From assembly GCF_016592435.1 (NCBI RefSeq), contig NZ_AP014545.1, positions 2,054,693 to 2,118,692 of the forward strand: a stretch of DNA of 64,000 nt, read 5' to 3'. A program made the translations under genes and the position numbers. This document shows positions 46,824 to 57,830 of this stretch, piece by piece. The notes under the pieces are model-generated. The model was not told the DNA's origin and made no database searches. It worked only from the letters and a program-made list of their open reading frames with translations. Each line of letters begins with the position of its first letter. Position 1 is the stretch's first letter. The stretch comes from Amphritea japonica ATCC BAA-1530 (GTDB lineage Bacteria; Pseudomonadota; Gammaproteobacteria; Pseudomonadales; Balneatricaceae).

Positions 46824-46848
46824 ATATTAAATATAACTAATATATAAT
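46824..46848 (+). promoter_or_regulatory. ArsR-type operator and -10 of the DUF2892 gene
   Basis: ATATTA-N8-TAATAT (46824-46843) is a perfect inverted repeat whose arms equal those of the repeat at 54267-54286. TATAAT at 46843-46848 overlaps its last base, so a bound repressor would block RNA polymerase. The gene starts 45 bases downstream. Confidence 0.75.
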
Positions 46849-46892
46849 ATTCGACAGATATTCACATAACTAACATCGTTGAGGTAAAGATC

Positions 46893-47297
46893 ATGTCTCT
46901 TAATGCCGCACTTCGTCTTCTGGCAGGAAGCGTAATTCTGTTAAGCCTAGCTTTAGGTACTTATATGCACCCTGCCTGGTACTACCTAACCGGGTTCGTC
47001 GGTCTTAACCTTTTACAGTCTGGATTCACTAAATGGTGCCCGGCCATCACCGCCTTTCGTATGCTGAAGTTAACAGAGCAAAGCTGCGACACAGGCATGA
47101 GCATTCATCAGGGTGTTCGCATTATCGCAGGCACTGGTGTTCTCCTGACAGTAGCAGCGTTTATGTTCTTTGCTGCCCCCCAGTGGATTCTCTATCTAAC
47201 AGCGGCATTTGGTGCCAGTCTGCTTCAATCTGCATTTACTGGATGGTGCCCTGCCTTCACCATCGCCGGACTTATCGGCTTCAAAAAAGCAGCTTAA
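46893..47297 (+). CDS. Tandem DUF2892 (YgaP-type) inner-membrane protein
   Basis: A 134-residue protein made of two DUF2892 units, each a helical hairpin. The first is LNAALRLLAGSVILLSLALG followed by GFVGLNLLQSGFTKWCPAITAF. The second is QGVRIIAGTGVLLTV followed by FGASLLQSAFTGWCPAFTIAG. Both carry the conserved WCPA cysteine. In E. coli YgaP this module is fused to a rhodanese and its gene neighbours ygaV (ArsR type). Here it stands alone with an ArsR-like operator. The exact role is unknown; a link to sulfane sulfur is inferred. Confidence 0.88.
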   Translation: MSLNAALRLLAGSVILLSLALGTYMHPAWYYLTGFVGLNLLQSGFTKWCPAITAFRMLKLTEQSCDTGMSIHQGVRIIAGTGVLLTVAAFMFFAAPQWILYLTAAFGASLLQSAFTGWCPAFTIAGLIGFKKAA

Positions 47298-47344
47298 GCA
47301 TTCGATTTCAAGAAGATATTCTCACCGAGTCAGCGCTTATTATT

Positions 47345-47380
47345 AATGATAAATGCCGCTTCCGCGGCATTTATCATTTT
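47345..47380 (+). terminator. Terminator of the DUF2892 gene
   Basis: A 15-bp perfect stem (47345-47359 with 47364-47378) and loop TTCC, ending in TTTT. It is a strong hairpin 47 bases after the stop. Confidence 0.9.
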
Positions 47381-47473
47381 AATACCCCAGGATTACCCAA
47401 TCCGGTAACTGAGCGGCTTCCCATGCACCCTCTCCATGAGTAGGATAAGCACATTGGGCAAAGGAGAGACCGG

Positions 47474-48757
47474 GTGCTGCTTTACAATCTGCAGAAAATT
47501 CTTAAGCTGATGTTGCCTGGCTTCATTCTGCTGTCACTGTCGCCCTTCATTCACAGTCAGCTTAACAACCTTACTTTTGGACAACAGCAACTACTGGGCT
47601 ATATTCCCCCATTACTTGCCTTACTCTCATTAACGCTCTGCATCAGCTTTAACCAGAGTCGACTGCTACTCTCGACACTCAATCTAACTGGATTATTCTT
47701 ACTGATACAAGATCAGTTGCAAAGCAGCCTGAACCAGCCAGGAAACTTCGTATTATTCAGTTTGGTCAGTCTTCTTTTTCCAGTGCTTCAGCTATTTATT
47801 GCCTTCATACCGGAACGAGGCTTGAGCCTTCGCTGGATTCTCAGATACACCCCGGTGGTACTCAGCGGGTATGCCATACTGTGGCTTGCAGCTCAGAGCA
47901 ACGCACTCGCTCATTGGCTTACATCTTTGCCAATGGGATTAATTCAGATGTTTGCCGACCCTTATTTACTTAGCCAATGGACAACCTTCGCCTTCAGTTT
48001 ATCTATCCTGTTGAGCCTACTCATTCTTTGGTTTCGAGGCACTCTGGCCGATGCTTGCCTGGTATTAGTAACGCTTGCGGTTGCCGTTATGCTGGCCTTA
48101 TTCAGTGAGTCCAATATTTCAGCCTTGAGCAGCAGTCTGTCACTGATACTGATACTTTTTACCGTTCTATTTAACTCCTACAGTATGGCGTTTATCGATG
48201 AGCTTACCGGCTTGCCTGGGCGACGGGCGCTGGAAAACACACTCAATAGCGCTGGCCGTCATTACACCCTCGCGATGGTAGATATCGATCATTTTAAAAA
48301 ATTCAATGATACGTACGGTCATGATGTAGGAGATCAGGTATTAAGAATGGTTGCCAGTCAGATGCGTCAGGCTGCCCGCGGAGCCACTGTTTATCGCTAC
48401 GGAGGCGAAGAGTTCACTATCGTGTTCAAACGAATGGATGAAGTCAAAGCGATTGAAATTGCAGAGAAAGTAAGAACCAGCGTTGCTGAATACCCTATGC
48501 AGATTCGCGATCAAAACCGGCCTGGCGATGAAAAACAGGGGCGTAAGCAGCGAGGCCGAAAAAATAAAGATGATGGCACCGCTCAGGTCACTATCAGTAT
48601 CGGTCTGTGCCAAAAAATGAATGACCACAAAGATAGCCAGTCTGTTATTAAACAAGCCGACGAAGCGCTCTATCTTGCCAAACAACAAGGTCGAAACCGT
48701 TCAGTGGCCTGTCACATAGCTCAACCCCGTAAACGTAGAACTGTCGCGGCAACATGA
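47474..48757 (+). CDS. Membrane-bound diguanylate cyclase
   Basis: A 427-residue protein with about eight N-terminal TM helices (to about residue 237), then a GGDEF domain with DELTGLPGRRALE and active site RYGGEEF. The C-terminal half contains an unusual Lys/Arg-rich insertion (GDEKQGRKQRGRKNKD) inside the cyclase domain before VTISIGL, and a basic tail. It starts with GTG, preceded by AAGGAGAG. No inhibitory RxxD site is seen. It resembles cyclases with an integral-membrane sensing domain. Confidence 0.93.
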   Translation: MLLYNLQKILKLMLPGFILLSLSPFIHSQLNNLTFGQQQLLGYIPPLLALLSLTLCISFNQSRLLLSTLNLTGLFLLIQDQLQSSLNQPGNFVLFSLVSLLFPVLQLFIAFIPERGLSLRWILRYTPVVLSGYAILWLAAQSNALAHWLTSLPMGLIQMFADPYLLSQWTTFAFSLSILLSLLILWFRGTLADACLVLVTLAVAVMLALFSESNISALSSSLSLILILFTVLFNSYSMAFIDELTGLPGRRALENTLNSAGRHYTLAMVDIDHFKKFNDTYGHDVGDQVLRMVASQMRQAARGATVYRYGGEEFTIVFKRMDEVKAIEIAEKVRTSVAEYPMQIRDQNRPGDEKQGRKQRGRKNKDDGTAQVTISIGLCQKMNDHKDSQSVIKQADEALYLAKQQGRNRSVACHIAQPRKRRTVAAT

Positions 48758-48860
48758 ATATGTTTCACACATGTAATCGGTTTATCTGCCGATAACCAAT
48801 CTACTCTTTAGGTGAACTACAACATTATTGTGGTCCTGAAACTCAAACGGAGGACCGGGA

Positions 48861-49418
48861 ATGGAAATCAAATCAACACAGAATCAACCAGCGGCAGATG
48901 CGAACCTGGCAACAAAACAATCCCAGGCTGTACTCGATAAAGACGTACAGAACAGGGCAATCCTCCAAGCCTCTCTGGATGTCAGTATATCTTCAGGTAA
49001 TGATTCTCTGGCTCTGCTATACAGCAGCGTAGTCAGTGAACTCAATCAAGTGCTTGAAGCGGACATGGGACCTTCTGCTATACAAAAAGCTTACGACTCT
49101 GGGGTGGACATGAGCCCTGCAGCCACAGCGGAACGCATTGTCGGATTAAGCGCTAACTTTTTCAGCAGTTATCAGGACCAGCACCCCGAGATGGATTACG
49201 AAACTCAGGTACGCAGCTTCGTTGAGTTGATTGCTGGCGGTATAGATCAGGGTTTTAGTGAAGCCCGCGACATTCTCGATGGCTTACAAGTTCTGGAAGG
49301 TGATATCGCCTCTAACATTGATACCACTTATGATCTGGTTCAGGAAAAGCTAACCGCGCTGATCGATACATTGCTCAACCCTGAGGTAAGCGAAGGAGAT
49401 ACTGCAGTACCCGAGTAG
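48861..49418 (+). CDS. DUF5610 family protein
   Basis: A 185-residue soluble, mostly helical protein. SLALLYSSVVSELNQVLEADMGPSAIQKAYDSG (in part) and GGIDQGFSEARDILDGLQVLEGDIASNIDTTYDLV match what I recall of DUF5610, a gammaproteobacterial family of unknown function. GGAGG precedes the ATG. It ends at the hairpin at 49441. Confidence 0.85.
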   Translation: MEIKSTQNQPAADANLATKQSQAVLDKDVQNRAILQASLDVSISSGNDSLALLYSSVVSELNQVLEADMGPSAIQKAYDSGVDMSPAATAERIVGLSANFFSSYQDQHPEMDYETQVRSFVELIAGGIDQGFSEARDILDGLQVLEGDIASNIDTTYDLVQEKLTALIDTLLNPEVSEGDTAVPE

Positions 49419-49440
49419 TACGCTCACGCCAAGTAAAAAC

Positions 49441-49469
49441 AAATAAACCGGGCAACGTCCGGTTTATTT
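49441..49469. terminator. Bidirectional hairpin between DUF5610 and the outer-membrane barrel gene
   Basis: An 11-bp perfect stem AAATAAACCGG/CCGGTTTATTT with a 7-base loop, suitable for ending both convergent transcripts. Confidence 0.85.
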
Positions 49470-49492
49470 ATTTGCGCGCTGCACTACCCCTA

Positions 49493-50842
49493 TCAGAACG
49501 CATATCGAATCCGGCCATAAACATTACTCGCATCTTCAAACTGACCGAAAAAAGTATGCGATTTCTCCCCACCAAAAACATTGGCTCCAACCACTATATT
49601 CAGATTATCACTGTAGCGATAAGTAACCGTTGGACGAATAAAGTAATCGTCGTCACTGGGTGAATAATAGGTAAATAGTGAGCCAATCAGGTTGTCCTGA
49701 AGCATTCGATAGTTGAGCCTGACGGTATACAGATAACGATTCTTTGCCGGGTTATAAGGCGACGCTGAAGCTTTCTTCAGGGCTGTATAGTCCTGCGTTT
49801 GTTCCAGGTAATACTGTAAACCCAGGGTTAGCCTGGGCAGTAACTCCCGCTCGTATCCCAGCAAGAAACGAAACTGATCATTAGGTTTCAACGGATTGTT
49901 ACCGGCGCTGTCCTCTGCCAGATGCCAGGCAATTTCAGCATTTGCTAAGCCGGTGCCAAGATTTCCCCGCACACTGGCGCCGAACACATCCAATCGGGTA
50001 AATTCCGGCTGTCCGGTTGCACTCAGGGCATTCGGTTGCTTCTGAAAGCCTCGGTAGCCATACAGAGCCCACTCGGTACCGCGGGCATTTCCGGCAAGGC
50101 GGGTGGCAAATTCGCCGTTGGCAAAACTATTTGCCGGATCCTCAGCAACAATACGCCCGGAAGGTGCTGCAACGTTCTCCCCTGTCTGAGGCGAAAACCA
50201 GGAGAAACGTTCGCCATTTATAAACCTGTCCGAGGTAAACACTGGCACCCACACCAACTCTAAACTGGCTGAGTCGCCGTAATAACTTGTTTTAGCACCC
50301 GCCACCGGCGCTTTAAGGTACTCGGTATCTCGCCCGGAAAAATAAGACTGCCAGTCTTTAGGAAACATATCATTCAGAAACAATAGGTCTCCGGTACCCC
50401 AGGTGAGTACCTGCTGGCCAATTTTGACATCGGTGCGCTCTGTGATCCCGAAAGTATATGACGCTTCGCGAAGGTCTGCCCGGGTTCCCTGTACAACCCC
50501 ATCGGCATACAGGTCTGCCTTAATGGTATAGCGGTTATCTCCAATAAAACCGGTTGTTTCCAGTCGTAAACGAAGATCGGCCAGGGTCGCATCATCAACA
50601 GCGGAAAATTGCTCGTCAACGGCAGAATCTTCCTGAAGCCTCATTCCCAGCGCCGTTTCAACAAACCCATGCCAGTTACTACCGCTCTGCTCTTCTGTCC
50701 AGCTATCGTCATTCCAGCTCTCATCACCCCAGTCGTCACCGTTCGACGTTTCACGGACTGACTCATTAACAGCCTCTTGGGCGAGAACCGCTGGCGTTGA
50801 AAGCGCTATAGCGGCCATCAGAGGCCAGTATTTTATTGTCAT
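49493..50842 (-). CDS. Outer-membrane beta-barrel protein of the RND export operon
   Basis: A 449-residue protein with a signal peptide (cleavage near VLA|QE, residue 21). A peculiar Asp/Trp-rich linker (residues 35-57, four Trp) follows. After it come alternating beta strands ending with an aromatic C-terminus (YGRIRYAF), the outer-membrane insertion signal. It resembles DUF1302-like barrels that accompany MMPL-type permeases. Start at ATG 50842, 20 bases after the LolA-fold gene; a longer frame overlaps that gene and lacks support. The substrate is unknown. Confidence 0.85.
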   Translation of the reverse strand: MTIKYWPLMAAIALSTPAVLAQEAVNESVRETSNGDDWGDESWNDDSWTEEQSGSNWHGFVETALGMRLQEDSAVDEQFSAVDDATLADLRLRLETTGFIGDNRYTIKADLYADGVVQGTRADLREASYTFGITERTDVKIGQQVLTWGTGDLLFLNDMFPKDWQSYFSGRDTEYLKAPVAGAKTSYYGDSASLELVWVPVFTSDRFINGERFSWFSPQTGENVAAPSGRIVAEDPANSFANGEFATRLAGNARGTEWALYGYRGFQKQPNALSATGQPEFTRLDVFGASVRGNLGTGLANAEIAWHLAEDSAGNNPLKPNDQFRFLLGYERELLPRLTLGLQYYLEQTQDYTALKKASASPYNPAKNRYLYTVRLNYRMLQDNLIGSLFTYYSPSDDDYFIRPTVTYRYSDNLNIVVGANVFGGEKSHTFFGQFEDASNVYGRIRYAF

Positions 50843-50862
50843 TATCTCAGACCCGTTTAATG

Positions 50863-51669
50863 TTACTCTGGACGCTTCAACCACTGACGCGGTGGATTGC
50901 GCAGTGAACGTTCAGAAAAGACAGAGCTTTCCATGCCCATATCATAGCGAATAAATCGAAACTCCATGGTCGTGCTCGCACCACTGATAAGATCGCTCAC
51001 CCGTGATTTTGTCACGGTAGGAATTCCCTGCACCTCTTTTGTACCCAGGACTTCGACCCGACGATAGAGCTTGTCACTACTGTCGTAATACTCTATTTTC
51101 ACCGGCAACATACTGACCTTCTCAATCCATACCTGATACCGGCTAAATTCGACTGAATTAGCATCTTTAGGCGTATTTTCTACCAGGTAATACTTTTCTG
51201 TCGTTTCTATCAGCCGATGATTATCGTCATCAGAATTACGACCTGAAACATCCTCGTAGAAATAGTGTGAACCGACAAAACTGGTACGTTTATCTCCGGC
51301 AGAGATCCGCTTCACCAGATCAAGTCCCGGCAGATAGAGCCAGCGATCATCGTCACCCTGTGCATGTTTCTCAACCAGAAAAACAGTATTGCGAACATCC
51401 GCTGGTCGGCTAAATACCACGAGGAACTGCTGATCGCCGCCATCTTCATGATCCCGCCGCAGAATAGTAAACTGGCGCTGCTGCTTTCTCCCCTGCGCAT
51501 CCTCAATCACCATCCGAGCTTCGGAACGGCCATCATCGCCTTGATAGTAGGCAGCCAGAGTCGCCTGGTTGATAATGACATTTACATCCGTCAGATCTTC
51601 AGCCCAGACCGCTGTCGTAAACAGCATTGTCAGTGATATCGAAAAAATTGAAGCCAGTTGCTTAAACAT
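50863..51669 (-). CDS. LolA-fold outer-membrane lipoprotein-sorting protein
   Basis: A 268-residue periplasmic protein with signal peptide (cleavage near VWA|ED). It matches the 'outer membrane lipoprotein-sorting protein' family found next to MMPL/RND permeases: FLVVFSRPADVRNTVFLVEKH, RWLYLPGLDLVKRISAGDKRTSFVGSHYFYEDVSGR in part, and VWIEKVSMLPVKIEYYD. It likely carries a hydrophobic cargo between the permease and the barrel. GGAGA precedes its ATG. It overlaps the RND gene by eight bases. Confidence 0.9.
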   Translation of the reverse strand: MFKQLASIFSISLTMLFTTAVWAEDLTDVNVIINQATLAAYYQGDDGRSEARMVIEDAQGRKQQRQFTILRRDHEDGGDQQFLVVFSRPADVRNTVFLVEKHAQGDDDRWLYLPGLDLVKRISAGDKRTSFVGSHYFYEDVSGRNSDDDNHRLIETTEKYYLVENTPKDANSVEFSRYQVWIEKVSMLPVKIEYYDSSDKLYRRVEVLGTKEVQGIPTVTKSRVSDLISGASTTMEFRFIRYDMGMESSVFSERSLRNPPRQWLKRPE

Positions 51670-54220
51670 GGTGAGTCTCCTTTCTAGCTGGCTTTACGCC
51701 AAACAGAGCATCTTTGTTACTAATCAGTTGCATCACCGCAGGCAACAGCATGACTGTCACTGCTGCGGATACCGCCATAATCGTTGCCAGAAAGAAACCA
51801 ACGGTAATATAGGGTACCAGTGGAGCAAACAGTAAGGGCGTAAAGCCGATAGCAATAACCACCGCATTACGACTGATTGCCCGGGAAGGCCCTTTATATA
51901 CTTCAGCTACGGTCTGCTGCCAATCTCCACATTCCCGATATATCGCCCGGGTACGTTCAAGAAAATGAATCGCAAAATCTACCGATAAGCCCAGTGTTAA
52001 CGCTGATAAAACCGCAATCGGCATATCATAGTCTTTACCCACTAGTCCGATCAGCCCGTATATAAACAATATAGTGACCGTCAGCGGTAACATTGATAGC
52101 AGGCCGATTTTGACTGAACGGAATAGCAACATCATCATCAGCAACACCATCAAAAAGGCCCCCATCAGACTGTTTAACATGCCGTTAACCATCTCATCCT
52201 GCCAAACCACATTGATGTAAGTCAGTCCCGCCCAATTGAGCTCAACCCCCTGAGGCAAAGGATTCCCTTCTACATAGTCTTCAACAAGGGCCAGCACCTC
52301 ACTCATATCCTGATTATCACCACTACTAAGCTGCAGCCACAAAGTAGTAGAACGATAGTCCGGAGTCACCATATGCCACAGATCATCAGGTCGGTGCGAA
52401 CCCTGGAAGCTCAGGACTGTCTGCGCCGCCGCTGCAGCGGATGGCGGTAGTCGGTAAAACTCTGTTTCACCACCCTGCAATTCGCGGTATACGGTTTTTA
52501 ACAGCGTAGGCAAACCATTACTCTTACCGATATAGTCAGACTGATCCAGATAGCTTTGAAGATTATCCAGATAGGTTACTGCCTCAGGCGTCAGGAAATA
52601 TTTACTGTTGATCTGAGCTTGCTCAGTCATATCAATTAGCGATAGCCAGAGATTTTCATTAGCAGAATCTTCATAGCTTAACTCATCAAAAAGATAAACC
52701 AGCTCATTGGTATATTCAGTAAAATCAGCCGCAGCAGCACCCGTTAACCTGGCTTGCAAATCCACGCCTGCTTCTGATGCGCGAGCCAGAAGTTGCTGAT
52801 TTAATCCGCTTTCCAAATCCCCTTTTTTATCCAGCACAAGAAACGCATTATAGGTTCCCGGAAAATGGTGATTCATCACCTGATCAGCAACCCGCAAGGG
52901 ATGGTCCGGTTTAAACCAGCGCACCGGATTATCATTTATCTGAATCTGCGCCACACCATAACCACTGCCAACCAGAATTAAGATAAATAAAACCAACAGC
53001 GTTTTAGCGCGGGCAATAGAGAAACGGCCCGTAGAGATGAGCAAACGACCCAGCAAAGAACTGTCATCTTCTTCGATATTATGATCTTGCAGCTGAGCCA
53101 TACGCTGAGGCGAAAGGCTGACAATATACGCAGGAACCAGGGTAATCGTTAACAGGAATGCCAGCATAATACCGAACGCCACATGCAGACCGAAAATTTG
53201 TACCGGGGGAATCGGCGTAAAAGCCAGCGAAGCAAAACCAACGGCAGAGGTGATTGATGTGAACAACATCGGTGTAAACAAGTGACTTAAAACATCCGCC
53301 AGTGCTTTTTTCGGATCATCTCCCGGACGATATCTATCGGCAAATTCAGACAGTATGTGCACCGAATCAACCACCGCGATAGGCATTAGAAAAATAGGAA
53401 TCATCGAGCTCATAATATGCACGGTGTATCCTTGCCCAATCAGCAAGCCCATCGTGATAATAACTGAGCCCATCGCCACCAGCATCGGTGCGGTGATCAG
53501 AAGGAAGCTACGGAAAAAGACCCACATCAGAATAAAGATCATGAGTCCGGCCAGAGGTGCTGAGATCGCCATCTGAATAAACATCTCAACGCCAAAAGTA
53601 TCTTCAGCCACCGGTAAGCCTGAGATGTAATACTGATTATTACCGCTCAACTGAGCTATTTCAGACTGGATCTCTCCGGCAATTCGATAGCTTTCAGATT
53701 TCTGCTTAATGGGGATATAGATGCCAGCAGCCTCTCCATCACCCGAAACCAGCGTATTATTCAGCAGAGGCAACCGTTCTACCGATTGGCGAATTTGATC
53801 AATGCCAGCCTGATCTTCAGGTACAGACTTCATCATCCACTCAAAACGGATCGTGCCTGGCGCTTCCTGACCTATATTATCAACACGATCAAGCGACATC
53901 ATATCCTGACCGACAACCCCGTCCATCTGCACAATGGCATCAGACAGTTGCTTCAGTTCAGACAGACTCTCCCGATTAAACACGCCCTTATCGGAGTTGT
54001 TGACCACCCCGACAACGATCATGTCGTGCAATCCGAACCGCTGCTTCACTTCGTCATGAAAAACTCTGGCGGGATTATCATGGGGCAGCATGTTTTCCGG
54101 GTCAGTATCTACCTGAATTGACGGTATCTGAAATCCTGCCAGCGCTGCCAGCAGTATCACCCCGATAAAAACCCATCTAGGGCGATTCATGGCAAGATTC
54201 ATCAGTGTCGATTGGAGCAT
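51662..54220 (-). CDS. RND superfamily (MMPL/HpnN-type) exporter
   Basis: An 852-residue inner-membrane permease with two homologous halves, each a single helix, a large periplasmic loop and five further TM helices. The start IPSIQVDTDPENMLPHDNPARVFHDEV (in part) is typical of MMPL/HpnN transporters for lipids or hydrophobic molecules rather than drug pumps. No membrane-fusion protein is encoded; instead the partners are a LolA-fold protein and a barrel. AGGA lies seven bases before the ATG. Its promoter carries the ATATTA-N8-TAATAT operator. Confidence 0.93.
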   Translation of the reverse strand: MLQSTLMNLAMNRPRWVFIGVILLAALAGFQIPSIQVDTDPENMLPHDNPARVFHDEVKQRFGLHDMIVVGVVNNSDKGVFNRESLSELKQLSDAIVQMDGVVGQDMMSLDRVDNIGQEAPGTIRFEWMMKSVPEDQAGIDQIRQSVERLPLLNNTLVSGDGEAAGIYIPIKQKSESYRIAGEIQSEIAQLSGNNQYYISGLPVAEDTFGVEMFIQMAISAPLAGLMIFILMWVFFRSFLLITAPMLVAMGSVIITMGLLIGQGYTVHIMSSMIPIFLMPIAVVDSVHILSEFADRYRPGDDPKKALADVLSHLFTPMLFTSITSAVGFASLAFTPIPPVQIFGLHVAFGIMLAFLLTITLVPAYIVSLSPQRMAQLQDHNIEEDDSSLLGRLLISTGRFSIARAKTLLVLFILILVGSGYGVAQIQINDNPVRWFKPDHPLRVADQVMNHHFPGTYNAFLVLDKKGDLESGLNQQLLARASEAGVDLQARLTGAAAADFTEYTNELVYLFDELSYEDSANENLWLSLIDMTEQAQINSKYFLTPEAVTYLDNLQSYLDQSDYIGKSNGLPTLLKTVYRELQGGETEFYRLPPSAAAAAQTVLSFQGSHRPDDLWHMVTPDYRSTTLWLQLSSGDNQDMSEVLALVEDYVEGNPLPQGVELNWAGLTYINVVWQDEMVNGMLNSLMGAFLMVLLMMMLLFRSVKIGLLSMLPLTVTILFIYGLIGLVGKDYDMPIAVLSALTLGLSVDFAIHFLERTRAIYRECGDWQQTVAEVYKGPSRAISRNAVVIAIGFTPLLFAPLVPYITVGFFLATIMAVSAAVTVMLLPAVMQLISNKDALFGVKPARKETHHV

Positions 54221-54263
54221 CTGCAGGTCCTGTTTTACTTATAACTAAACGATCAATTTACCC

Positions 54264-54286
54264 ATTATATTAGAATATACTAATAT
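54264..54286 (-). promoter_or_regulatory. ArsR-type operator and -10 of the RND operon
   Basis: ATATTA-N8-TAATAT (54267-54286) is a perfect inverted repeat. On the minus strand TATAAT (54269-54264) overlaps its downstream edge, as at 46824-46848. It lies in the divergent region of the RND operon and the ArsR gene. Confidence 0.78.
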
Positions 54287-54308
54287 TTAAAAGTACTACA
54301 TTAGTAAA

Positions 54309-54337
54309 TTGAGATTTAGCCATCTCTACAGTAGAAT
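54309..54337 (+). promoter_or_regulatory. Sigma-70 promoter of the ArsR-family gene
   Basis: TTGAGA (54309-54314), 17-base spacer, TAGAAT (54332-54337), each 5/6 to consensus; transcript start near 54344. The spacer contains part of the inverted repeat GAGAT-N6-ATCTC (54311-54326). Confidence 0.65.
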
Positions 54338-54432: not shown

Positions 54433-54741
54433 ATGACGCCAGAAACGCTGGCGATGATGAAAGAGAACTCCAGTAAGGCTGCCAAACTGATGAAAGCCTT
54501 AGGTAATGAGAGTCGACTTCTGATTCTCTGTTATCTGGACGGGAAAGAACTTTCAGTGACCGAACTAAATGAGTGTCTGGACCTGAGCCAGTCAGCCCTG
54601 TCGCAACATTTGGCCGTTCTGCGTAAAGATGGCCTGGTCAATACTAGACGAGAGTCACAAACCATCTACTATTCTCTCTCAGGCGATACTGCCACGCGAA
54701 TCATTCACACTCTACATGAGATGTTTTGCCCGACAGTCTGA
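54433..54741 (+). CDS. ArsR/SmtB-family regulator, probable BigR/SqrR-type persulfide sensor
   Basis: A 102-residue winged-helix repressor. ALGNESRLLILCYLDG is the N-terminal helix pair. SVTELNECLDLSQSALSQHLAVLRKDGLV is the recognition region, and TRRESQTIYYSL the wing. Cys33 (LLILCYL) and Cys99 (EMFCPTV) are 66 residues apart, the same spacing as the dithiol of BigR (Cys42/Cys108) and SqrR (Cys41/Cys107). ArsR metal-binding CVC and SmtB His/Asp sets are absent. An extra Cys48 exists. Start uncertain: TTG 54412 also fits; ATG 54343 lies at the predicted transcript start. Confidence 0.9.
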   Translation: MTPETLAMMKENSSKAAKLMKALGNESRLLILCYLDGKELSVTELNECLDLSQSALSQHLAVLRKDGLVNTRRESQTIYYSLSGDTATRIIHTLHEMFCPTV

Positions 54742-54823: not shown

Positions 54824-57559
54824 TTAATGCTGTAAACGGTACCGCTGCCAATCTTCGGTCGGCTCATTCAGCATCATCTCCATTTCCACTACATCCTCAT
54901 CCATGTTGTAGTGGTTTTTAAATCCAAGTTTCAGCGCTAATCCCTGCATCCCTTTGTTAGACGTCAGGGTTGACCCCATAAACAGCAAGGTACCCCGCGC
55001 TTTGCAGTAATCGATCGCTTTTTGCATCAACACGATACCCAAACCCTCTCCCTGAAGGTCATCACGAATAACCACCGAAAATTCAGCTCGAATATTATCG
55101 GCGTCGGTGACTGCCCGAACCACACCCAGAGTTTCCCAACCGGGCTCGTCTTTACGCGGAGAGGTGACTATAAATGCCATCTCCCGGTCATAATCGATCT
55201 GAGTCCAGTTTGCTAACTCCTGATGCGTCGGAATCCCCCTGCTGTAAAAATATCGCAGACGGATCGATTCCGGGCTGAGCTGATTGTAAAACTCCAGATG
55301 ATTGGGCTCATCCTCACCCCGTATCGCCCGCAATACAGCTTTACGGCCGGACTTACGTAATGTTACATGTTCGCTCAGATGCTCTGGGTATGGCGAAATT
55401 GCCAGTACCGAAGGCTCTCCCAGAGAAACAGCAACATCCACCGCTAACACACCACGACGATTGATCAGCATTGGATTAATTTCCAGGCCTTTCAGGTTAG
55501 GTAACTCAACCACCATCTGTGAAAGCTTAATGAGCAGATTACTCAGCTGTTCCAAATCCCGTTCTAACTGCTCACTATTCTCTCTCAGAACCGAATAGAT
55601 ATGCGAAGTACTGATTAGCTGACGCGCCAGACTGAGGTTCAGCGGCGGTAACATAACCTGCCGGTCAGCCAGAACATCGACTGAATACCCCCCTTTACCG
55701 AACACCAGTAAGGGACCGAATACCGGATCTCGGGTGATCCCCATATTGATCTGTAGTGACTGAAAACCCCGCTTCATTTGCTGTACACAGAAACCCTGCA
55801 CATCATCTTCTGGAAAGCGCTCCCTCACCCTATACGTAAGCTGAGTAACCGCCTGCTTAACGTCAGCACTGGAAAACAGATCCAGGGCCAGGTCTTTCCA
55901 ACGGGGCTTGTCTTTATTGTCATAGTTAAACGGATAAATATTGTCCCGGTGCATCACTTTAACGGCAACCGCGCCACCTAACTTTGTCGCAATATCGACA
56001 ACACCTTCCACATCATCCGCATAATGCGTGTGGGAGACGGGAATATCGTACTGGTCCAACAGGTCAGTGGCTTCATTGTGCGTCAGGTAATCACGCCCTT
56101 CTGCCAGCGCATCGGCAATCAGCTTTTTCGCCCGCAGATGATTCTGTTCGTTCTGATCTACAAAAGGAGCCGGTGTTTGCTTCATTACCGCCTGATTACG
56201 GCGAAACTCAACCATATGCATAAATGCATCAACCGCTTCCTCAGGCGTAATAAACGTTGTAATTCCTGCTGAATTAAAGTGATTTCGTGACTCAATGGCA
56301 GTGCTTCGTCCCATCCAACAGGTAAGGATATTACGAGGTGTATTGCGCGCCACTTTGATGATCTCTTCAGCGACATCAATACCTGGCGCCAAACGAGTCG
56401 GCGCGTGCAGCACCAACACGGCATCGACATTCGGATCTTTGGTTAGCAGCTGAGTTACCTTAGCAAAGCGTTCCGGTGTTGCATCGGAATGCATATCAAT
56501 CGGATTTTTCAGGTTCCAGTGATCCGGCAACACTTCCCGCAGGGCTGTGACCGTGTCCTCACAGAGTTCAGATAACTCACCACCACTGCGCAGCAACTGA
56601 TCGGTCGCCAGTGCATTTGGCCCCATTCCATTACACACCAGCGCTAGGCGTTCACCACGCATCGGCTTCATACGGGTCAGAGTCTCAAGCGCATTGTAGA
56701 GCTGGTCAACCGTATCAACGCGAACCACACCGGCACGACGCAGTGCCGCATCATAGATGAGATCTTCATCTTTGATGCCCAGCGCTGGCTGATTTACTTT
56801 TTCGTCCTCAAACACCATATTGGATTTAAGCACCAGCACCAGCTTGTTCCGCGATGCCGCCCGTAATGAACTAAGCAGGTCTCGGGAAGAGCCGACAAGG
56901 TGATCCAGCTGTATCAGAATTGACTGAGTGTAAGGATCTTGTGCGTAGTAATCGATGATAGAAGGAAGATCAACATCCACCCCTTCACCCAGCGTTAGAA
57001 AATGAGAGAAACCAATCTCCTGGCCATTCGCCCAGTCGATCATAGCCGTGCCAAGTAAACCCGATTGGCCAACGTAGCTGACCTTACCTTTACGAATATT
57101 CAGGTGTGAATAGCTGGCGTTCATCTTATGGGCTGACACCAACATACCCATGCAATCAGGCCCTAATATACGGATGCCGTAAGGCTTAGCGGCCTCCATA
57201 ATCTCATCACGCATACTCCGGCCCAGCGGCTCACTGGCGCGGGACAAACCACCGGTGAGGATCATCGCTGCCTTCACCATATTCGCGCCTAATTTACGAA
57301 TCAGCTCTGCTACCGACCCGGCCGGTGAACAGATAATTGCCAGATCAGGCATCTCCGGCAACTTTGATAACGACTTATAGCAGGTCACACCGTAAACCTG
57401 ATCATAGCCCCGCTTATTGACCGCCATTAATTTACCTTCAAACCCACCATCCAGCAGGTTCTGGAGGACGATGCCTCCCATGCTGTTCTCTTTTTCTGAT
57501 GCTCCAAACACCGCAATCGATTTAGGCTTAAAAAAACGTTTGAGATATTGTGTACTCAA
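54824..57559 (-). CDS. NDP-forming acyl-CoA synthetase/GNAT protein (Pat/PatZ-like)
   Basis: A 911-residue protein acetyltransferase-type fusion. The N-terminal CoA-binding domain starts LKRFFKPKSIAVFGASE. Succinyl-CoA-ligase-like domains follow (SYVGQSGLLGTAM, LVCNGMGPNALATDQL), then an ATP-grasp domain (about 490-715). A C-terminal GNAT domain (about 745-905) has VVIRDDLQGEGLGIVLMQKAIDYCK, the acetyl-CoA loop. Pat proteins acetylate lysines of acetyl-CoA synthetase and others. The start is TTG at 57559 because GGAG lies eight bases upstream; the longer frame is unsupported. Confidence 0.92.
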   Translation of the reverse strand: MSTQYLKRFFKPKSIAVFGASEKENSMGGIVLQNLLDGGFEGKLMAVNKRGYDQVYGVTCYKSLSKLPEMPDLAIICSPAGSVAELIRKLGANMVKAAMILTGGLSRASEPLGRSMRDEIMEAAKPYGIRILGPDCMGMLVSAHKMNASYSHLNIRKGKVSYVGQSGLLGTAMIDWANGQEIGFSHFLTLGEGVDVDLPSIIDYYAQDPYTQSILIQLDHLVGSSRDLLSSLRAASRNKLVLVLKSNMVFEDEKVNQPALGIKDEDLIYDAALRRAGVVRVDTVDQLYNALETLTRMKPMRGERLALVCNGMGPNALATDQLLRSGGELSELCEDTVTALREVLPDHWNLKNPIDMHSDATPERFAKVTQLLTKDPNVDAVLVLHAPTRLAPGIDVAEEIIKVARNTPRNILTCWMGRSTAIESRNHFNSAGITTFITPEEAVDAFMHMVEFRRNQAVMKQTPAPFVDQNEQNHLRAKKLIADALAEGRDYLTHNEATDLLDQYDIPVSHTHYADDVEGVVDIATKLGGAVAVKVMHRDNIYPFNYDNKDKPRWKDLALDLFSSADVKQAVTQLTYRVRERFPEDDVQGFCVQQMKRGFQSLQINMGITRDPVFGPLLVFGKGGYSVDVLADRQVMLPPLNLSLARQLISTSHIYSVLRENSEQLERDLEQLSNLLIKLSQMVVELPNLKGLEINPMLINRRGVLAVDVAVSLGEPSVLAISPYPEHLSEHVTLRKSGRKAVLRAIRGEDEPNHLEFYNQLSPESIRLRYFYSRGIPTHQELANWTQIDYDREMAFIVTSPRKDEPGWETLGVVRAVTDADNIRAEFSVVIRDDLQGEGLGIVLMQKAIDYCKARGTLLFMGSTLTSNKGMQGLALKLGFKNHYNMDEDVVEMEMMLNEPTEDWQRYRLQH

Positions 57560-57830
57560 GAGACTTTCTCCGATGACCTGGAAACAGGCCGCCACGGCCT
57601 GATATAAATACTGCTGTCATTCTACATTACGCAGGTGCAGCATAAAACGTATTCGACAACTTTTGTGACCGAAATCATAAAGCCGGTTCGAAGTTGATAT
57701 AAACACAGTTCATTAACGGCTACAGAGACTAATTTTCAACATCGCTGCGTTGTTATAATGCTTATGACTATAGCAAACCAACCTCGAACGTAACCGGTCA
57801 AAAGCCCTCAGGAAGGCGCAAAACGGGCAT
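57560..57830. other. Intergenic region upstream of the Pat gene
   Basis: No convincing gene is seen. It carries the Pat promoter area on the minus strand. On the plus strand a TATAAT lies at about 57754 with no gene behind it. A GCTGCGTTG stretch resembles one upstream of phaC. A small plus-strand RNA ending near the 57831 hairpin is possible but unsupported. Confidence 0.5.

What the first reader, a model, noticed from the sequence alone, without database searches (positions are those of the whole stretch)
46824..54286. Shared ATATTA-N8-TAATAT operator links an ArsR-type persulfide-sensor gene, an RND export operon and a distant DUF2892 gene
Seen: identical perfect inverted repeats ATATTA-N8-TAATAT at 46824-46843 and 54267-54286, 7.4 kb apart. 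In each case TATAAT overlaps the downstream edge of the repeat. The spacers differ in sequence, so this is not a recent duplication. The second site sits beside an ArsR-family gene whose Cys33 and Cys99 are 66 residues apart, as in the persulfide sensors BigR and SqrR. Known: YgaV/BigR-type regulators control DUF2892 or rhodanese genes. Inference: one reactive-sulfur-responsive repressor controls both the DUF2892 gene and the RND/LolA/barrel operon.
Basis: partly seen in the sequence, partly recalled or inferred. Interest (0 to 1): 0.78.

Follow-up and report, generated by a model that had tools for sequence, protein, structure and literature searches.

The report
Sulfur-stress regulon controlling a lipid-type exporter
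Two identical DNA switches in a marine bacterium belong to a shared set of switches, found in its relatives, that very likely let one sulfur-sensing protein turn on sulfide-clearing genes together with an unusual export machine of unknown cargo.

Summary
The two repeats are real and more than chance. The working motif is ATATTAG-N6-CTAATAT. It fills the spacer of the RND promoter and overlaps the -10 box of the DUF2892 promoter, where a bound repressor would block both. Among relatives it stands before the RND/LolA-like/barrel operon in 31 of 31 loci (at most 1 mismatch in 14 fixed bases) while its own spacer drifts, and it follows RND, not the ArsR gene. In the genus all 21 perfect copies lie before RND, DUF2892, persulfide-dioxygenase-like, SQR-like or SLAC1 genes. 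The reversed control motif has no perfect copy in 37 genomes; with 1 mismatch, 17 genomes hold 86 copies against 15. One-mismatch copies add rhodanese, sulfite-dehydrogenase-like, YeeE/YedE and OsmC genes. The linked ArsR protein keeps both cysteines of the persulfide sensors (80 and 81 of 81 sequences) and is nearest to HlyU among solved structures. DNA binding, repression and persulfide sensing are inferred, not shown. New is the exporter as the most constant predicted member; RND genes beside such regulators were already noted in print. The exporter's cargo is unknown.

The parts
46824..46843 (.). operator 1, ATATTAAATATAACTAATAT (1 mismatch to ATATTAG-N6-CTAATAT), DUF2892 promoter
   Evidence: within 2 mismatches in 21 of 26 orthologous or homologous promoters
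46843..46848 (+). -10 box TATAAT of the DUF2892 promoter, overlapping the operator edge by one base
   Evidence: sequence
46893..47297 (+). DUF2892 gene: two YgaP-like transmembrane repeats, each with a WCP motif
   Evidence: Pfam PF11127, 2 stretches; motif seen in the translation
54267..54286 (.). operator 2, ATATTAGAATATACTAATAT, in the spacer of the RND promoter
54286..54291 (-). -35 box TTTAAA of the RND operon
   Evidence: TTGAAA/TTTAAA-like box at this place in the 30 aligned loci
54264..54269 (-). -10 box TATAAT of the RND operon
   Evidence: TATAAT at this place in 22 of 30 loci
51662..54220 (-). MMPL/HAE3-like RND transporter, 852 aa
   Evidence: PF03176; TIGR00921 E=1.8e-54 but below its cut-off; MmpL/NPC1/HpnN-like fold
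50863..51669 (-). periplasmic LolA-like protein
   Evidence: PF17131 E=6.8e-58, DUF1329 E=1.7e-9; solved relatives 4z48, 9tp6, 3bk5
49493..50884 (-). outer-membrane beta-barrel (true start probably ATG 50842)
   Evidence: no Pfam family for the window protein; DUF1302 in 2 of 16 aligned members, best E=1.2e-5; porin/AlgE-like model, pLDDT 68.4
54433..54741 (+). ArsR-family regulator, 102 aa, Cys33/Cys99
   Evidence: PF01022; HlyU 4k2e E=4e-29; cysteine conservation
54309..54337 (+). likely regulator promoter: -35 TTGAGA (54309-54314), 17 bp, -10 TAGAAT (54332-54337), preceded by an ACATTAG half-site
   Evidence: similar element in many, not all, loci

Best explanation
The two palindromes are operators of one regulon run by the ArsR/HlyU-type protein encoded at 54433-54741. 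In the reduced state its dimer sits on ATATTAG-N6-CTAATAT between or over the -35 and -10 boxes and blocks RNA polymerase. When persulfides or polysulfides build up, they bridge Cys33 and Cys99, the protein leaves the DNA, and the RND-LolA-barrel export operon, the DUF2892 membrane protein and, elsewhere on the chromosome, a rhodanese gene and a SLAC1/TehA-type channel are switched on. In relatives the same operator also serves persulfide-dioxygenase-like, SQR-like, sulfite-dehydrogenase-like, YeeE/YedE and OsmC genes. Shown here: operators, conservation, promoter geometry, gene content, cysteines. Inferred: binding by this protein, repression, persulfide as signal.
For: Operator at most 1 mismatch upstream of RND in 31 of 31 loci (19 perfect) with varying spacer, and at 1 mismatch before a 58%-identical RND beside a 59%-identical regulator in another family of the order (G029). 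ArsR genes with RND beside them have it within 1 mismatch in 30 of 30 cases, those without in 1 of 50. Control genes within 2 mismatches: AcsGNAT 0 of 45, gor 0 of 24, GGDEF 0 of 2, DUF5610 0 of 1, Usp 8 of 18, of which 7 share the stretch with DUF2892. In L071 RND is about 2.9 kb from the regulator and still carries it. Perfect copies: 25 in 37 genomes, reversed control 0; all 21 in the genus lie before RND (11), DUF2892 (3), PDO-like (3), SQR-like (2, about 300 bp upstream) or SLAC1 (2) genes. At most 1 mismatch: 86 against 15 in 17 genomes. Rhodanese promoters within 2 mismatches in 12 of 13, SLAC1 in 13 of 15. The operator fills the 16-bp spacer of the RND promoter. Four genus genomes with the regulator but no RND beside it (G001, G002, G003, G013) have no perfect copy. 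Regulator: HlyU, the 6o8l group (SqrR, name recalled), YgaV and BigR are among its best solved relatives; Cys33 in 80 of 81, Cys99 in 81 of 81, ALSQHLA in 81 of 81. Of the 15 genomes with a perfect copy 14 encode a homologue. The deduced SqrR site ATTC-N8-GAAT (passages of PMC9774250) has the spacing of ATTA-N8-TAAT. HlyU forms a tetrasulfide bridge with persulfide and loses DNA (passages and section 4 of PMC10509353), and HlyU represses its own gene (passages of PMC6018088).
Against: No binding or expression data. Within the home genome alone the motif barely exceeds its control (21 against 15 at 2 mismatches). Some promoters lack it: PDO-like in 4 of 11 rows, DUF2892 in 2 distant homologues (and 3 mismatches in 3 more), SLAC1 in 2 of 15, SQR-like 3 mismatches in 1 of 3. 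Of 30 one-mismatch loci read, 7 have no sulfur link and 7 more are a Sel1 gene beside a cysteine-synthase-like gene. The footprinted V. cholerae HlyU site TAATTCAGACTAAATTA does not fit this motif, and its authors see no strict HlyU consensus (passages of PMC4330345). One genome with a perfect copy (G034, 81% complete) has no homologue of the regulator. Several target names rest on family scores below NCBIfam cut-offs (PDO, SQR, sulfite dehydrogenase).
Confidence: 0.83

Rival explanations
1. The operators belong to a regulon of sulfur genes, but another transcription factor encoded elsewhere binds them; the neighbouring ArsR gene is a bystander or a further target.
For: The palindrome is missing (more than 1 mismatch) upstream of the ArsR gene in 49 of 50 loci without RND beside it, so the classic sign of autoregulation is absent; the HlyU footprint sequence in PMC4330345 (passages) differs from this motif.
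Against: Divergent adjacency with RND in 30 of 80 loci and with DUF2892 in five Neptunomonas loci; 14 of 15 genomes with perfect copies encode a homologue; among the five HTH_5 hits of the home genome it is the only one seen with this cysteine pair (the others: an ars-operon regulator, a NemA-like-linked regulator and two frames of 506 and 174 aa not read further); the deduced SqrR site has the same geometry.
Confidence: 0.1
2. The regulator senses another signal (peroxide, other thiol oxidants, arsenite or metals) and the export operon serves general envelope stress.
For: HlyU was earlier proposed as a redox switch (passages of PMC4330345); the RND relatives move lipids, lipid-linked or siderophore cargo, not sulfur.
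Against: The genes under the operator are mostly sulfide, persulfide and sulfite genes; no CxC metal site (the home genome's ars regulator has CVC); HlyU reacts with persulfide but not H2O2 (PMC10509353, passages).
Confidence: 0.1
3. Chance: AT-rich palindromes near promoters.
For: The fixed bases are nearly all A or T, and a single genome gives many near matches.
Against: 31 of 31 conserved RND promoters, nearly empty controls, 86 against 15 across 17 genomes.
Confidence: 0.01

Closest known systems
HlyU of Vibrio cholerae (persulfide-responsive ArsR protein)
   Same: Closest solved sequence (4k2e, E=4e-29); cysteine pair 66 apart (Cys38/Cys104, PMC4330345 passages); same stretch SQSALSQHLA
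   Different: HlyU activates hlyA from a remote site (though it represses its own gene, PMC6018088 passages); here sites sit inside promoters of sulfur genes, which predicts repression; the footprinted sequence differs
BigR / SqrR / YgaV persulfide repressors
   Same: Dithiol pair; control of yeeE/yedE/pdo2 (BigR, PMC7315123 section 8) and of a rhodanese gene (YgaV, PMC9774250 passages); control of sqr by SqrR and DUF2892 in YgaP are recalled; site over the promoter; deduced SqrR site with equal spacing
   Different: Half-site ATTAG instead of ATTC; score below NCBIfam's BigR cut-off (89.8 against 155 bits); an RND export operon as the most constant predicted target
AmeABCD of Castellaniella defragrans (HAE3 RND, DUF1329/LolA, DUF1302 barrel, AmeC; PMC6394551 passages)
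   Same: HAE3-like RND pump with LolA-like periplasmic protein and a barrel with DUF1302 traces in one operon
   Different: No AmeC gene; placed, by inference, under a sulfur sensor rather than in a monoterpene island
RND genes beside sulfane-sulfur-responsive ArsR regulators (PMC12423496, section 2.1 and passages)
   Same: Published survey of neighbourhoods names RND pumps among likely targets of dithiol ArsR regulators
   Different: No operator or RND type given in the section read; its supplement was not seen

Membership tests
Dithiol persulfide-sensing ArsR regulators (SSN cluster 4 of PMC10509353) | ArsR winged helix-turn-helix domain | tested here: met
   PF01022 E=5.6e-14
Dithiol persulfide-sensing ArsR regulators (SSN cluster 4 of PMC10509353) | Conserved cysteine pair in alpha2 and alpha5, about 66 residues apart | tested here: met
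   Cys33 in 80 of 81 and Cys99 in 81 of 81 sequences; aligned with HlyU's cysteines
Dithiol persulfide-sensing ArsR regulators (SSN cluster 4 of PMC10509353) | Persulfide-driven polysulfide bridge and loss of DNA binding | not testable with these tools
   needs protein chemistry
Dithiol persulfide-sensing ArsR regulators (SSN cluster 4 of PMC10509353) | Targets are sulfide/persulfide detoxification genes | tested here: met
   by operator prediction only: PDO-like, SQR-like, YeeE/YedE, rhodanese, DUF2892
BigR proper (NCBIfam NF040642) | Score over the curated cut-off | tested here: not met
   89.8 bits against 155
HlyU | Orthology with Vibrio HlyU | tested here: inconclusive
   best PDB hit 4k2e, but no tree with Vibrio sequences was built
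HAE3 transporters (TIGR00921) | Score over the curated cut-off | tested here: not met
   E=1.8e-54 but 185 bits against 351.9: a relative, not filed as a member
AmeABCD-type cassette | RND + LolA/DUF1329 + DUF1302 barrel | tested here: inconclusive
   RND and LolA/DUF1329 met; DUF1302 found in only 2 of 16 barrel sequences, not in the window's
AmeABCD-type cassette | AmeC-like second periplasmic protein | tested here: not met
   the operon holds three genes only

The most novel reading that the evidence does not exclude
The RND-LolA-barrel machine is a disposal route for hydrophobic sulfane sulfur (for example S8, organic polysulfanes or sulfur-modified lipids), pumped from the inner membrane across the envelope. 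It would be most needed in species like this one, where no homologue of the relatives' persulfide dioxygenase or of one of their two SQR-like types was found.
Probability: 0.17. Interest if true: 0.8.

Novelty: new variant of a known kind. Interest (0 to 1): 0.52.

Why it matters
Persulfide-sensing repressors are known to control sulfur enzymes and small sulfur transporters. Here a lipid-transporter-like RND machine is the most constant predicted member of such a regulon, which suggests an envelope branch of the reactive-sulfur response with an unknown substrate. It also gives an operator code for this regulator group, so that regulons can be predicted in related marine bacteria, and hints that HlyU-like proteins, known for toxin control in Vibrio, serve sulfur detoxification elsewhere.

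Tried and rejected
Single-genome scan as proof: rejected, because near matches in the home genome barely exceed the reversed control. The looser core ATTAG-N6-CTAAT with 1 mismatch is useless (97 against 142 in the control). Autoregulation through the palindrome: not supported, since it is absent (more than 1 mismatch) upstream of the regulator in 49 of 50 loci without RND beside it (L112 had only 92 bases of upstream DNA). A conserved half-site before the regulator's -35 box is left open. Recent duplication of the site: rejected, the two spacers differ and both sites have conserved counterparts. RND as a substitute for PDO: only partly fitting. PDO was sought in 14 genomes. Of the 10 genus genomes among them, the three without RND beside the regulator (G001-G003) have PDO; of the seven with it (G000, G004-G009) only G007 and G009 do, the latter with an in-frame stop; G011 and G015, outside that search, have both RND and PDO. 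Own-genome perfect copies at G000:390827, 694044 and 3351517 were looked at and dropped. Papers were sought; none listed was seen to describe this operator or such a regulon in Oceanospirillaceae, but most subscription journals are not held and no supplement was seen.
Full report
Setting. The window lies in a 3.83-Mb single-contig genome. The regulator is 99% identical to Amphritea orthologues, so the organism is probably an Amphritea-like member of the Oceanospirillaceae. From left to right: a Usp gene (-), DUF2892 (+), GGDEF (+), DUF5610 (+), barrel/LolA-like/RND (-), ArsR (+), then an acyl-CoA-synthetase/GNAT-like gene (-, name by eye).

Observation. None of 120 simulated windows held a perfect copy. 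The pair is suggestive but thin on single-genome evidence: at 2 mismatches the home genome has 21 sites against 15 for the reversed motif.

Conservation. 80 loci around regulator relatives were fetched with organism names. RND lies divergent and adjacent to the regulator in 30 of them, and in L071 at about 2.9 kb. The RND promoter carries ATATTAG-N6-CTAATAT with at most 1 mismatch in 31 of 31, 19 of them perfect; Markov-shuffled versions of the same stretches did as well in 0 of 100 cases each, 1 of 100 in L078. The spacer varies. A further RND, 58% identical, beside a 59%-identical regulator in another family of the order (G029) has the site at 1 mismatch. Regulator genes without RND beside them have the site within 1 mismatch in 1 of 50 loci (L085), against 30 of 30 with RND, so the site belongs to RND. 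Four genus genomes (G001-G003, G013) have the regulator next to the GGDEF/DUF5610 genes with no RND between and no perfect copy anywhere. Controls in the same loci, within 2 mismatches: AcsGNAT 0 of 45, gor 0 of 24, GGDEF 0 of 2, DUF5610 0 of 1; Usp 8 of 18, 7 of which share their upstream stretch with DUF2892.

Promoter anatomy. Over 30 loci a TTGAAA/TTTAAA-like box ends at the first operator base and, after 16 bases, comes TATAAT (22 of 30), so the operator is the promoter's spacer. In the window: -35 at 54286-54291 and -10 at 54264-54269, minus strand. For DUF2892, TATAAT overlaps the operator edge by one base. This geometry predicts repression. The regulator has its own promoter-like pair (54309-54337) with a half-site just before it; similar elements stand in a number of loci without RND.

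Unbiased scan. In 37 genomes (own included) perfect copies number 25, in 15 genomes; the reversed motif gives 0. All 21 in the genus were assigned: RND 11, DUF2892 3, PDO-like 3, SQR-like 2 (about 300 bp upstream), SLAC1/TehA-type 2. Families were tested on one representative of each kind, the rest by eye; the PDO-like protein matches the dioxygenase half of Blh and, like the SQR and sulfite-dehydrogenase matches, scores below NCBIfam's cut-off. In G010 and G016 the DUF2892 and RND copies lie 7476 bases apart, the layout of the window (7443). Outside the genus the four perfect copies lie before DUF2892 (G020), RND (G023), an HlyD-type adaptor (G019) and an ArsR-methyltransferase gene (G034). 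With 1 mismatch 17 genus genomes hold 86 against 15. That listing was cut; beyond sites already assigned, 30 loci were read: 16 lie before SQR-like (3), sulfite-dehydrogenase-like (2), OsmC (4), YeeE/YedE (3), TsoY (2), PDO-like (1) or SulP (1) genes; 7 before a Sel1 gene divergent from a cysteine-synthase-like gene; 7 have no sulfur link (L250, L251, L255, L256, L257, L266, L269), one of them inside a reading frame. In the home genome one-mismatch copies lie before the rhodanese gene (G000:2227972) and the Sel1 gene (G000:1081453), and two-mismatch copies before SLAC1 (825289, 825307) and OsmC (470592). Orthologous promoters confirm rhodanese (12 of 13 within 2 mismatches, one more locus had no upstream DNA), SLAC1 (13 of 15), DUF2892 (21 of 26) and PDO-like (7 of 11 rows, two of them the same site).

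Regulator. Its best solved relatives are HlyU (4k2e), a 102-aa 'transcriptional activator' (5znx), HlyU (3jth), the 6o8l group (SqrR, name recalled), YgaV, NolR and BigR. Cys33 (80 of 81) and Cys99 (81 of 81) are nearly invariant; Cys48 is not (54 of 81). NCBIfam's BigR model scores below cut-off. Of 37 genomes 27 encode a homologue, including 14 of the 15 with perfect operators. PMC10509353 (passages, section 4): HlyU forms a tetrasulfide with persulfide and leaves DNA. PMC9774250 (passages): deduced SqrR site ATTC-N8-GAAT. PMC4330345 (passages): a different HlyU footprint, and no strict consensus. PMC6018088 (passages): HlyU represses its own gene. PMC7315123 (section 8): BigR targets yeeE/yedE/pdo2, which match part of this regulon. 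PMC5823870 (one passage) gave no operator sequence.

Exporter. The RND protein is MMPL/HAE3-like; sequence and model matches are MmpL3/4/5, NPC1/NPC1L1, Dispatched, Patched and HpnN, mostly carriers of lipids, lipid-linked or siderophore cargo (model pLDDT 71.5). The periplasmic partner is LolA-like. The barrel is porin/AlgE-like by a moderate model (pLDDT 68.4, TM about 0.4-0.5) with a DUF1302 trace in 2 of 16 members. AmeABCD (PMC6394551, passages) has the same three kinds of protein plus AmeC and gives monoterpene tolerance. Cargo here is unknown. The home genome gave no match for the relatives' PDO or the L148 type of SQR; the second type was not searched for.

Verdict. What is new is the operator code and the exporter as its most constant predicted member. 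PMC12423496 (section 2.1) already names RND pumps beside such regulators, so this is a new variant of a known kind.

Noticed in passing
window 54298-54337: Element ACATTAG-n-AAATTGAGAT plus TAGAAT before the regulator gene; similar elements stand in many loci, also where RND is absent; possibly a weak autoregulatory half-operator next to the -35 box.
   Followed up: partly
L013:1501-1520 (G000:1081453) and L242, L243, L249, L259, L260, L261, L264: A recurring ATATTAG-N6-CTGATAT site before a Sel1-repeat gene divergent from a cysteine-synthase-like gene; may be a weaker member of the regulon.
   Followed up: partly
L123:1501-1520 (G000:470592): Two-mismatch operator before an OsmC-family gene; four relatives carry one-mismatch sites there (L248, L252, L262, L268).
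   Followed up: partly
window 54824-57595: Acyl-CoA synthetase/GNAT-like gene lies near the regulator in many of the 80 loci, with no operator within 2 mismatches in the 45 tested.
   Followed up: no
G009:C74:19057-19926 (L162): Persulfide-dioxygenase homologue with one in-frame stop codon and no operator.
   Followed up: no
   Followed up: no
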